A stretch of 64,000 nt of DNA, taken from NCBI GenBank assembly GCA_023663945.1, contig JAMPGL010000011.1, positions 1-64,000 of the forward strand, read 5' to 3'. This document shows positions 11,583-14,760 of this stretch, in pieces. This stretch comes from Lachnospiraceae bacterium (lineage in GTDB: Bacteria > Bacillota > Clostridia > Lachnospirales > Lachnospiraceae). The translations under genes were made by a program, and so were the position numbers. The notes beneath the pieces are model-generated. The model was not told the DNA's origin. It was given only the letters and a program-made list of their open reading frames with translations, and searched no databases. Position 1 is the stretch's first letter, and the number at the start of each line of letters is the position of its first letter.

Positions 11583-11611
11583 TTGCGTCAGATTTGCAGA
11601 TATGATATATT
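11583..11611 (+). promoter_or_regulatory. Promoter of the antisense RNA in the toxin locus
   Basis: TTGCGT (11583-11588), 17 bases, TATATT (11606-11611). The transcribed sequence that follows (CATG, GGGAAA, CTAGA, GCGGCT, ACCCT in order) repeats the 5' end of the toxin mRNA on the other strand, so the two converging promoters look like inverted duplicates. Confidence 0.6.
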
Positions 11612-11617
11612 AAGCAT

Positions 11618-11723
11618 GAAAAGGGAAAGCTAGAAAAGCGGCTACCCTTCGAATAGATTTTAGCAATAACCTTTTACAAGGTCAGCCGTCACTATTGGCA
11701 GTAGTGGCGGCTATTTTCGTTTT
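11618..11723 (+). ncRNA. Putative antisense antitoxin RNA (about 105 nt)
   Basis: Predicted from a plus-strand promoter at 11583-11611 and a strong terminator at 11684-11723. Its 3' end overlaps the last codons of the convergently transcribed toxin gene, the arrangement of TxpA/RatA-type type I systems in Bacillus. The RNA is complementary to any toxin transcript that extends beyond its stop codon. Existence is inferred from signals only. Confidence 0.5.
11684..11723 (+). terminator. Terminator of the antisense RNA
   Basis: AGCCGTCACTA (11684-11694) and TAGTGGCGGCT (11702-11712) form an 11-bp stem with one G-U pair, followed by ATTTTCGTTTT. The toxin stop codon lies at the base of this stem on the other strand. 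Confidence 0.8.
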
Positions 11724-11806
11724 CCCTTGAAAATTGTGTAACACAATCCGATAAGGGCAATAATGAATATTCCAGTCTGAACTAAATCAGAATATGTAAT
11801 CATCAT
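11711..11806 (-). CDS. Putative holin-like toxin (Hol-Tox), type I TA
   Basis: 31 residues from the ATG at 11804-11806, with GGAGGG upstream. The peptide MMITYSDLVQTGIFII... is a short polar start, one hydrophobic helix (about residues 10-23) and a basic tail ending FKGKRK. This matches the recalled pattern of Firmicutes holin-like toxins (ITYSDL near the start, KKK-like end), small peptides that insert in the membrane. A longer in-frame upstream extension exists but contains the ribosome binding site and 5' hairpins, so it is rejected. Controlled probably by the convergent antisense RNA and by mRNA structure. Confidence 0.72.
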   Translation of the reverse strand: MMITYSDLVQTGIFIIALIGLCYTIFKGKRK

Positions 11807-11814
11807 TGGCAACG

Positions 11815-11849
11815 CCCTCCTTTCTTTCGTCTGGAGGTTCAACCCCTCC
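11815..11849 (-). promoter_or_regulatory. Ribosome-binding-site sequestering hairpin of the toxin mRNA
   Basis: On the minus strand GGAGGGG (11843-11849), CCTCC (11833-11837) and the ribosome binding site GGAGGG (11815-11820) follow one another. CCTCC can pair with either GGAGG, so the binding site can be hidden or exposed. Such switches are usual for type I toxin mRNAs; here the folding is inferred from complementarity. Confidence 0.5.
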
Positions 11850-11895
11850 GATAAAAGAGGGTAAGCCGCCCGGCTCTCTAGTTTCCCATGAACAA

Positions 11896-11924
11896 AGTAT
11901 ATCACGCCTGACTTTATCAGACAA
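11896..11924 (-). promoter_or_regulatory. Promoter of the holin-like toxin
   Basis: On the minus strand TTGTCT (11919-11924), 17 bases, TATACT (11896-11901). Transcription would start near 11890 and leave an ~80-nt structured 5' untranslated region. Confidence 0.65.
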
Positions 11925-13559: not shown

Positions 13560-13733
13560 TTACCTATTCATTCTACCCCTAACGTTCACTTTTTCAAGAT
13601 AAACTCTGGACTGCTCATCAGCGTAAAAAGTCTTTATATTTCTGATAACTTCCATCATTTTCCCGCTTTTATCTATGCTCTTTTGCAGTTCAATCTCATC
13701 CACTCTATAATTAGGGCGAGTCCCAAATTTAAT
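13560..13733 (-). pseudogene. Short coding remnant behind the PDDEXK nuclease gene
   Basis: A frame of about 57 codons (KFGTRPNYRVDEIELQKSID ... YLEKVNVRGRMNR) with normal protein-like composition but no ATG and no ribosome binding site at its head. It overlaps the last bases of the nuclease gene in another frame. It looks like the C-terminal end of a lost gene; I do not recognise the family. Confidence 0.3.
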
Positions 13734-14760
13734 CCTTTTTCATTTCTGCAATATTTTCTTCCCCTGCTTTCGCAGATTCCAAGGCTTGATATTCCCTATT
13801 CAATTCACACAATAATTCATCTTCACTCGGCAGATATAATTTATATTTTGAAGCAAAAATCTGTGTTTCATTCTCGGGCAATGTATACTTAACCACAGAC
13901 TCGCTTTTATCTGCACATAATACAATGCCAATCGGCGGATTATCCCCTTCATTCATAAGTTCCCGTTCATAATAATGAACATACATCTGCATCTGCCCTA
14001 AATCCTGATGTGTTAAATCTCCAACTTTTAAATCTATCAGAACAAAACATTTCAAAATATAATTATAGAATACAAGGTCAATTCTAAAATGTCGTCCATC
14101 AAATGTAATGCGTTTCTGTCTAGCCACAAAAGAAAATCCTCTTCCAAGCTCTAAAAGGAATTTTTGCAAATGCGTAATCAATGCCTGTTCTAAATCACTT
14201 TCATAAAAATCATCATTTGAACTCAAACCAAGAAATTCCAAAACATACGGATCGCGGATAATGTCTTCTGGTTTCTTAGCAGGCTCCAATGCCTGAACTT
14301 CTGCTGCAACCTGTTCTTTCTCCTTACTGGATAATAATCTTTCATAAAAGAAAGAATTGATCTGCCTTTCAAGCTGTCTGGTACTCCATTGTGCTTTTAT
14401 GGCTTCCTGCATATAAAATTCTCGTGCATTATCATTTTCTACACGCATCAAAAGTCGATAATGAGTCCAACTCAATTCGCTACGCAGTGCGTAGCCATTT
14501 GGAAAGGTTAAATAGAACTGCCGCATATTTTTCAAATTAGCAACAGTAAATCCTTTTCCAAAATCCTGTGTCATCTGTTTTGACAATTCTTTTAATAAAC
14601 CTGAACCATATTCTGATTTTTCATTACCGCCCTGTTCTTCAATGATTGATTTTCCTATATTCCAATAGGCTTCAACCATTGCAAAATTAGCTGTTTGATA
14701 AACTTTATTTCTTGCCGAAATTAAAATTTCTTTAATTTCCTTATAAAAAGATACGTTCAT
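13729..14760 (-). CDS. PDDEXK nuclease domain protein (DUF1016/YhcG family)
   Basis: 343 residues, the usual length. The N-terminal DUF1016 region (MNVSFYKEIKEIL, AYWNIGKSIIEEQ, FTVANLKNMRQFYLTFP, SWTHYRLLMRVEN) is followed by a PDDEXK nuclease core (FRIDLVFYNYILKCFVLIDLKVGDLTHQDLGQMQMY), in which D, and the D-L-K pair, are the catalytic pattern. The E of the motif is replaced by D, as is common in this group. YhcG-type proteins are thought to act on DNA and are often carried by mobile or defence regions. The surrounding DNA is AT-rich, consistent with transfer. Confidence 0.87.
   Translation of the reverse strand: MNVSFYKEIKEILISARNKVYQTANFAMVEAYWNIGKSIIEEQGGNEKSEYGSGLLKELSKQMTQDFGKGFTVANLKNMRQFYLTFPNGYALRSELSWTHYRLLMRVENDNAREFYMQEAIKAQWSTRQLERQINSFFYERLLSSKEKEQVAAEVQALEPAKKPEDIIRDPYVLEFLGLSSNDDFYESDLEQALITHLQKFLLELGRGFSFVARQKRITFDGRHFRIDLVFYNYILKCFVLIDLKVGDLTHQDLGQMQMYVHYYERELMNEGDNPPIGIVLCADKSESVVKYTLPENETQIFASKYKLYLPSEDELLCELNREYQALESAKAGEENIAEMKKD

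What the first reader, a model, noticed from the sequence alone, without database searches (positions are those of the whole stretch)
11583..11924. Mirror-symmetric type I toxin locus: both promoters and 5' ends are inverted copies
The holin-like toxin gene lies between two convergent promoters with 17-bp spacers. Downstream of each, the same blocks (CATG, GGGAAA, CTAGA, GCGGCT, ACCCT) appear, as if the toxin promoter had been duplicated in inverse to make the antisense RNA. A read-through toxin mRNA could pair its own 5' and 3' ends, the fold-back seen in other type I toxin mRNAs, while the antisense RNA overlaps only the 3' end.
Basis: partly seen in the sequence, partly recalled or inferred. 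Interest (0 to 1): 0.75.

Follow-up and report, generated by a model that had tools for sequence, protein, structure and literature searches.

The report
Toxin mRNA zipped end to end
A tiny membrane-toxin gene makes an mRNA whose two ends are built to pair with each other, and its predicted RNA antidote begins with a near-copy of the mRNA's own start, so it could take over that pairing; relatives have kept their two ends matched while the sequence changed, and a known Bacillus toxin system folds in a similar way.

Summary
The mirror-image blocks are real and lie just inside the two predicted transcripts. In the toxin mRNA (about 11889 to 11619, minus) they form a 5'-3' long-range helix of about 24 predicted pairs. 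The arms co-vary: on average cognate arms pair better than swapped ones in 114 family loci, 82 further loci, and 23 and 21 more distant Hol_Tox loci; one column matches in 73 of 79 loci across all four bases. Mismatches lean to G-U in the toxin-sense RNA. Promoters co-vary weakly or not at all, so an inverse promoter duplication is not supported.

The 5' arm also holds the anti-Shine-Dalgarno. Folding predicts a closed ribosome site in nascent mRNA, a partly open one when the 3' arm pairs with the 5' arm, and a closed one again when the antitoxin covers the 3' arm. The same calculation on bsrG resembles the published effect of SR4. I read the locus as a Hol_Tox (TxpA/BsrG-like) type I toxin-antitoxin in a compact layout whose antitoxin starts at the 3' arm and mimics the mRNA's 5' end. 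The switch direction, opposite to hok/AapA, is predicted, partial, and inconsistent in distant relatives. New variant of a known kind.

The parts
11711..11806 (-). Hol_Tox-type toxin ORF, 31 codons plus stop; one hydrophobic stretch and a basic end
   Evidence: PF16935 26.1 bits, cut-off 23.3; ORF
11896..11924 (-). toxin promoter-like site TTGTCT-17-TATACT, TG before the -10
   Evidence: -10 lies 8 nt before GGGA in 41 of 79 loci
11857..11889 (-). 5' arm of the toxin mRNA; its end ACCCTC (11862-11857) is the anti-SD (segment A)
11833..11849 (-). leader hairpin B:C (GGAGGGG / AACCTCC) between anti-SD and SD
   Evidence: fold; coordinates
11815..11820 (-). Shine-Dalgarno GGAGGG (segment D)
11623..11650 (-). 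3' arm (segment E) of the toxin mRNA, pairs with the 5' arm
   Evidence: 24 predicted pairs in the full-length mRNA; cognate-vs-swapped tests
11618..11622 (-). short U-tract directly after the 3' arm (TTTTC); possible toxin mRNA 3' end
   Evidence: at least 5 U in the 8 nt after the arm in 72 of 82 loci
11583..11611 (+). antitoxin promoter-like site TTGCGT-17-TATATT
   Evidence: antisense -10 TATATT in 45 and TATAGT in 18 of 79 loci
11618..11722 (+). predicted antitoxin RNA, about 105 nt; its 5' end is the complement of E and resembles the toxin mRNA 5' arm
   Evidence: promoter and terminator positions; no transcript data
11684..11722 (+). antitoxin terminator-like hairpin (13 pairs) and T-rich tail; the tail lies opposite the end of the toxin ORF

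Best explanation
[quoted passage not shown] The toxin mRNA runs from about 11889 to about 11619, and its 5' arm pairs with its 3' arm (E). The end of the 5' arm is also the anti-SD. In the nascent mRNA it closes the SD; once E is made, E takes the arm and the SD becomes more open. The antitoxin RNA starts at E, so its 5' end is nearly the toxin mRNA's 5' arm over again. It competes for E, forms a long duplex with the 3' part of the mRNA, frees the 5' arm, and the anti-SD closes the SD again; RNase III would probably cut the duplex, as in B. subtilis relatives. The mirror symmetry is therefore forced by two pairings sharing strand E; it is not a copied promoter. Shown here: the complementarity, its co-variation and its spread. 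Predicted by folding: SD closing and opening. Inferred: transcripts, antitoxin action, toxicity, RNase III.
For: Cognate arms: -45.8 kcal/mol vs swapped -38.2 (sd 0.51; lowest of 20000 permutations -40.3) in all 114 non-redundant loci. Second set of 82 loci: -51.7 vs -47.3, sd 0.50. Closest-relative swaps: 45 of 57 disjoint pairs better, 11 worse, p = 1e-6; for neighbours with similarity of at least 0.4, 24 better and 8 worse of 33, p = 0.007. Column 18: 73 of 79 loci matched over four bases, MI 1.26 vs maximum 0.22 of 500 permutations. G-U lean towards the toxin-sense RNA: 247 vs 87, ratio 2.84 vs 1.97 +/- 0.06 in 2000 permutations; both kinds are rarer than in permutations (289 and 147), the second more so. 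Other Hol_Tox subclades: -43.4 vs -30.2, sd 1.56, 23 loci of the class; -50.7 vs -37.9, sd 1.65, 21 loci from elsewhere in the phylum; minimal form -40.7 vs -33.7, sd 1.6, 12 loci. SD unpaired: nascent 0.116, full 0.236, E blocked 0.119, E shuffled 0.124; full above E-blocked in 53 of 79, below in 2. SD paired with the anti-SD arm: 72% nascent, 26% full, 58% E blocked. Window: 0.02 nascent, 0.30 full, 0.03 E blocked (with slightly other ends 0.04, 0.43, 0.05). bsrG: SD-to-leader pairs 4.1 in full, 6.9 with E blocked; reviews report 4 to 8 bp on SR4 binding and SR4 pairing with the 3' part of helix P1 (passages).
Against: No transcript, probing or toxicity data exist here. The SD effect is partial (mean 0.24 in the full-length mRNA), flat (within 0.02) in 24 of 79 loci, and inconsistent in distant Hol_Tox loci (8 up, 4 down of 22). 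In 12 of 79 loci the nascent SD pairs mainly with the middle of the leader rather than with the arm. Reviews report no change around the SD for txpA/RatA and bsrE/SR5. The folding method ignores kinetics, pseudoknots and ribosomes. Of 114 loci, 15 had lost or replaced an arm or had other arms that the consensus missed, and 5 more gave a wrong arm. Some distant loci show no cognate preference (e.g. L142, L150, L299, L320).
Confidence: 0.7

Rival explanations
1. Hok/AapA-like direction: the 5'-3' helix keeps full-length mRNA silent, and 3' trimming activates it; the antitoxin then silences the trimmed form.
For: Described for hok and AapA, where a long-distance interaction occludes the SD (passages of PMC6733600). 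24 of 79 loci show no SD opening, and 4 of 22 distant loci show less.
Against: The anti-SD found by folding is in the 5' arm, and E draws it away from the SD. Only 2 of 79 loci lower SD access. bsrG, the characterised relative, goes the other way. An mRNA ending at the stop codon, without E, is predicted closed (0.122).
Confidence: 0.15
2. The long-range helix mainly protects both mRNA ends from exonucleases (such as RNase J1 at the 5' end) and makes the toxin mRNA stable; the antitoxin exposes the ends and recruits RNase III. SD effects are secondary. This can hold together with the main reading, so the confidences do not add up to one.
For: The helix starts 2 nt from the predicted 5' end. 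The complementarity is kept in distant sets where SD opening is not consistently predicted. RatA acts by mRNA decay (passages).
Against: Does not explain why the SD's nascent partner lies mainly in the arm, 59 of 79 loci. mRNA stability was not tested.
Confidence: 0.35
3. DNA-level inverted repeat: duplicated promoter, ends of a small mobile element, or gene conversion between the arms; no RNA role.
For: Mirror order of blocks; tandem and multiple copies occur; promoter 48-nt score slightly raised (p = 0.009).
Against: Mismatches lean to G-U in the toxin-sense strand. Co-variation is largely confined to the transcribed arms. Distant relatives keep the complementarity with other arm sequences. 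Ends of a mobile element were not searched for.
Confidence: 0.05

Closest known systems
bsrG/SR4 (B. subtilis SPbeta), TxpA/BsrG family
   Same: Small toxin of the TxpA/BsrG kind; 3'-overlapping antisense RNA; predicted long-range helix between the mRNA's 5' leader and its 3' region, which I take to be the published helix P1 whose 3' part is bound by SR4; SR4 binding lengthens the SD stem (passages).
   Different: bsrG has its own terminator after the 3' arm (sequence). From the reported lengths and overlap (294, 180 and about 120 nt) SR4 starts about 60 nt beyond the bsrG 3' end, some 90 nt before the arm, so the two RNAs do not begin alike. In the window the antitoxin starts at the arm itself.
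txpA/RatA and bsrE/SR5
   Same: B. subtilis type I loci with 3' overlap; duplex cut by RNase III (passages).
   Different: No SD change on antitoxin binding reported; their arms were not examined here.
par (fst, RNA I/RNA II) of pAD1
   Same: Convergent promoters, short toxin, repeats carried by both RNAs, SD sequestered in the leader (passages).
   Different: par has direct repeats DRa/DRb, so the two RNAs are complementary there in trans; here the repeats are inverted and complementary within the toxin mRNA. Toxin family differs.
hok/Sok and aapA/IsoA
   Same: 5'-3' long-distance interaction in the toxin mRNA.
   Different: There the interaction shuts translation, and for AapA 3' truncation opens it (passages); here predicted opposite.
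sprG/sprF (PepG1), S. aureus
   Same: Weakly related toxin: NCBIfam PepG1 model 20.6 bits, far below its cut-off 70; a review calls sprG1/sprF1 a txpA/ratA homologue (passage).
   Different: RNA structure not compared here.

Membership tests
Hol_Tox toxins (PF16935) | profile match over the curated cut-off | tested here: met
   26.1 bits vs 23.3
Type I toxin-antitoxin, TxpA/BsrG kind | short hydrophobic toxin with basic C-terminus | tested here: met
   31-residue sequence ending KGKRK, by inspection
Type I toxin-antitoxin, TxpA/BsrG kind | antisense RNA from its own convergent promoter, overlapping the mRNA 3' part | tested here: inconclusive
   promoter and terminator signals present, promoter conserved; no RNA data
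Type I toxin-antitoxin, TxpA/BsrG kind | toxicity suppressed by the antisense RNA | not testable with these tools
   none
bsrG/SR4-like switch | long-range helix between leader and 3' region | tested here: met
   co-variation; fold; not probed
bsrG/SR4-like switch | antitoxin binding at the 3' strand increases SD sequestration | tested here: inconclusive
   predicted in 53 of 79 loci and in the window; not measured
bsrG/SR4-like switch | own toxin terminator after the 3' arm, antitoxin starting further upstream (true of bsrG; not known to define the family) | tested here: not met
   antisense -10 and predicted start lie directly at the arm; layout count
hok/AapA-like fold-back | 3' end carries the anti-SD and closes the ribosome site | tested here: not met
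   by folding, the anti-SD is in the 5' arm
par/Fst | direct repeats DRa/DRb giving complementarity in trans | tested here: not met
   the arms are inverted repeats

The most novel reading that the evidence does not exclude
Hol_Tox toxin mRNAs are switched on by closing on themselves. The mRNA is translated only after its own 3' end captures the anti-SD-bearing 5' arm, and the antitoxin is a decoy of that 5' arm. In the compact mirror layout the 5' end may even serve as the upstream strand of the mRNA's own terminator (arm:E helix plus U-tract), so 3'-end formation and translational activation would be one event.
Probability: 0.25. Interest if true: 0.75.

Novelty: new variant of a known kind. 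Interest (0 to 1): 0.52.

Why it matters
Such loci are frequent: the toxin was found in 82 of 397 genomes of the window's family, and the Pfam model in 34 of 291 of its class and 38 of 299 of its phylum. The reviews I saw in passages describe probed RNA structures for a few B. subtilis loci. The co-variation suggests that one long-range helix is under selection across the family, offers a physical reason for SR4's remote effect on the bsrG ribosome site, and makes the predicted direction (fold-back opens) directly testable against the hok/AapA direction (fold-back closes). No Rfam family reached its threshold in the window, so the arms offer a handle for finding and pairing such loci.

Tried and rejected
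Inverse duplication of the promoter: rejected, because the promoters hardly co-vary while the arms do. Attenuator-like A:B + C:D hairpins in the leader (my first model, note): dropped, since the window folds as anti-SD A with SD D around a B:C hairpin. Pairing of E with the toxin's KGK codons (repeat I1): about 8 pairs in the isolated 3' fragment, nearly none in the full-length fold; the antitoxin's own fold does pair its 5' end with its 3' tail. Rfam at relaxed threshold gave only RefA9 (18.4 bits, cut-off 49) and SpF22 (15.5, cut-off 55), taken as chance. Phage and plasmid collections gave no match. Specificity between three copies in the genome: not clear-cut; for L001 a non-cognate 3' region scored better (-54.0) than its own (-48.6), the other two preferred their own.

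Rows lost: 19 weaker places (E 1.5e-4 and above) were not fetched. One search gave 140 tblastn hits; 4 fell to a score cut or lacked a stop and 10 lay at contig edges, leaving 126, of which 114 were non-redundant. A generic consensus found both arms in 87 of 114; 5 were set aside by eye for a wrong arm (82), 79 were folded. Of the 27 others, 12 are the minimal form tested. 23 of 30 class loci and 21 of 29 phylum loci had an ORF that passed my filters. The layout count uses a loose -10 pattern and is rough.

Full report
What is there. On the minus strand, 11806-11711 encodes a 31-residue peptide with one hydrophobic stretch and a basic end. It matches Pfam Hol_Tox (PF16935) at 26.1 bits, cut-off 23.3. 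The toxin promoter-like site is at 11924-11896 minus, the antisense one at 11583-11611 plus, both with 17-bp spacers; a 13-pair terminator-like hairpin with a T-rich tail, listed on the plus strand only, lies at 11684-11722. The predicted toxin mRNA runs from about 11889 to 11619 and the predicted antitoxin RNA from about 11618 to 11722. These ends are inferred from signals; no RNA data were available.

The mirror blocks. Just inside each predicted start lies the same series of blocks, GGGAAA - CTAGA - GCGGCT - ACCC. Read along the toxin mRNA, one copy is the 5' arm (11889-11857) and the other, reversed, is the 3' arm E (11650-11623). Their duplex is -36.8 kcal/mol; none of 2000 dinucleotide shuffles did as well, and none of 656 window position pairs at the same spacing reached the alignment score. 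The 271-nt RNA folds 5.9 sd below the mean of 200 shuffles, with the arms paired.

Conservation and co-variation. A protein search hit 12 of 37 genomes of the genus and 82 of 397 of the family. Of 140 hits in the fetched loci, 126 had full flanks and passed a score cut, and 114 were non-redundant. With fixed windows and no further exclusions, cognate leader x 3'-region duplexes average -45.8 kcal/mol against -38.2 for swapped pairs (sd 0.51, lowest of 20000 permutations -40.3). To control for relatedness I swapped arms only between closest relatives: 45 of 57 disjoint pairs do better with their own arm, 11 worse; among the closest 33 neighbour pairs (similarity at least 0.4) 24 better and 8 worse. 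A generic consensus found both arms in 87 of 114; 5 wrong picks were set aside by eye. In the remaining 82, Watson-Crick matches are 73.6% against 65.3% permuted (sd 0.6), and the variable centre reads G/G 39, T/T 25, A/A 6, C/C 3 of 79. A second set of 82 loci, from public genome contigs (a capped scan) and viral contigs and non-redundant with the first, gives -51.7 against -47.3, sd 0.50.

RNA or DNA? If the arms matched only as DNA copies, transitions should not care about strand. In the aligned core, mismatches that are G-U in the toxin-sense RNA number 247 (289 expected by permutation), those of the other kind 87 (147 expected); the ratio 2.84 exceeds all 2000 permutations (mean 1.97, sd 0.06). 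The promoters, by contrast, co-vary weakly or not at all, and the two sides differ in -10 distance and in the A-run. So the symmetry belongs mainly to the RNA, and pairing within the toxin mRNA explains the co-variation best.

How far it reaches. Hol_Tox loci drawn from the class, most of them from other families and with other arm sequences, show the same effect: -43.4 against -30.2, sd 1.56, 23 loci. So do 21 loci from elsewhere in the phylum: -50.7 against -37.9, sd 1.65. A short form within the family, 12 loci, gives -40.7 against -33.7, sd 1.6. Single loci without any preference for their own partner occur in both distant sets (L142, L150, L299, L320).

What the pairing does. The end of the 5' arm (ACCCTC) is complementary to the Shine-Dalgarno (GGAGGG). 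In the window's nascent RNA the two pair around an inner hairpin, and the SD is 2% unpaired; in the full-length RNA the arm is taken by E, and the SD is 30% unpaired; with E blocked, as the antitoxin would do, it returns to 3%. Over 79 loci the means are 0.116, 0.236 and 0.119, and 0.124 with shuffled E; against E-blocked, 53 rise by more than 0.02, 2 fall and 24 stay flat. The SD's pairing with the anti-SD arm is 72% nascent, 26% full and 58% E blocked. In the class set the effect is inconsistent: 8 up, 4 down of 22. The direction is thus a prediction, fairly steady for this group only.

A characterised yardstick. I located bsrG in the SPBc2 record NC_001884 (38 aa) and ran the same calculation. 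The leader pairs with the 3' region (28.7 pairs); the seven SD bases have 4.1 pairs to the leader in the full RNA and 6.9 with the 3' arm blocked. Reviews report that SR4 binds the 3' part of helix P1 of bsrG RNA and that the SD stem grows from 4 to 8 bp (passages of PMC6562991, PMC4147584 and PMC7430163). The original 2013 paper was not held. That helix P1 equals the helix I compute is my inference. The same reviews say that RatA and SR5 cause no such change, which fits the mixed result in distant loci.

What is different here. In bsrG the mRNA has its own terminator beyond the 3' arm, and SR4 starts some 90 nt before the arm by the reported lengths. By a rough pattern, 6 of 21 phylum-level loci look like this, 7 of 21 have an antisense -10-like site close behind the arm, and 8 neither; at class level 19 of 23 have the -10-like site and 4 neither. 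In the window the antitoxin begins at the arm itself, so toxin mRNA and antitoxin begin with nearly the same sequence: the antitoxin mimics the mRNA's 5' arm. A U-rich stretch follows E in 72 of 82 loci, which may be the toxin mRNA's end; it could equally be an A-rich start of the antitoxin. Whether the arm:E helix itself terminates transcription is open.

Novelty. Searches of the held library (between 2 and 20 papers listed per search) listed no paper that, from titles and abstract starts, describes this layout; subscription papers are largely absent, and only passages of nine papers were seen. No Rfam family reached its threshold in the window. I rate it a new variant of a known kind: the switch is that reported for bsrG/SR4; the compact mirror layout and the family-wide co-variation are the additions.

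Noticed in passing
G000 contigs C10, C52, C48, C19, C89, C62, C69: The window's genome holds about seven Hol_Tox-like loci: three by protein search at E 1.2e-8 or better, and four more by the Pfam model.
   Followed up: partly
L051 (G315:C11): Three toxin copies in tandem, 371 bp apart.
   Followed up: no
window 11621-11645 and 11704-11728: The antitoxin's 5' arm is also 76% complementary to its own 3' end, opposite the toxin's KGK codons; the antitoxin's predicted fold pairs part of these ends.
   Followed up: partly
L025, L031, L035, L042, L068, L077 (copy at 1015), L098, L109; L093, L095, L112: Loci that keep the antitoxin-side arm but lack a recognisable 5' arm (first eight), or keep the 5' arm but lack a recognisable 3' arm (last three).
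   Followed up: no
L068, L093, L116: Toxin frames cut by a premature stop (TGA, TAG, TGA) in relatives.
   Followed up: no
L281-L291: Eleven viral contigs carry the conserved leader pattern, so some copies may ride on phages.
   Followed up: partly
L234, L170: These named contigs (Parablautia intestinalis; a Lachnospiraceae bacterium) have the same lengths as G001:C78 and G024:C46 of the window's genus, which hints at the window's kinship.
   Followed up: no
window 13729-14760 (-): DUF1016_N/YhcG_C protein, a PDDEXK nuclease domain family.
   Followed up: no
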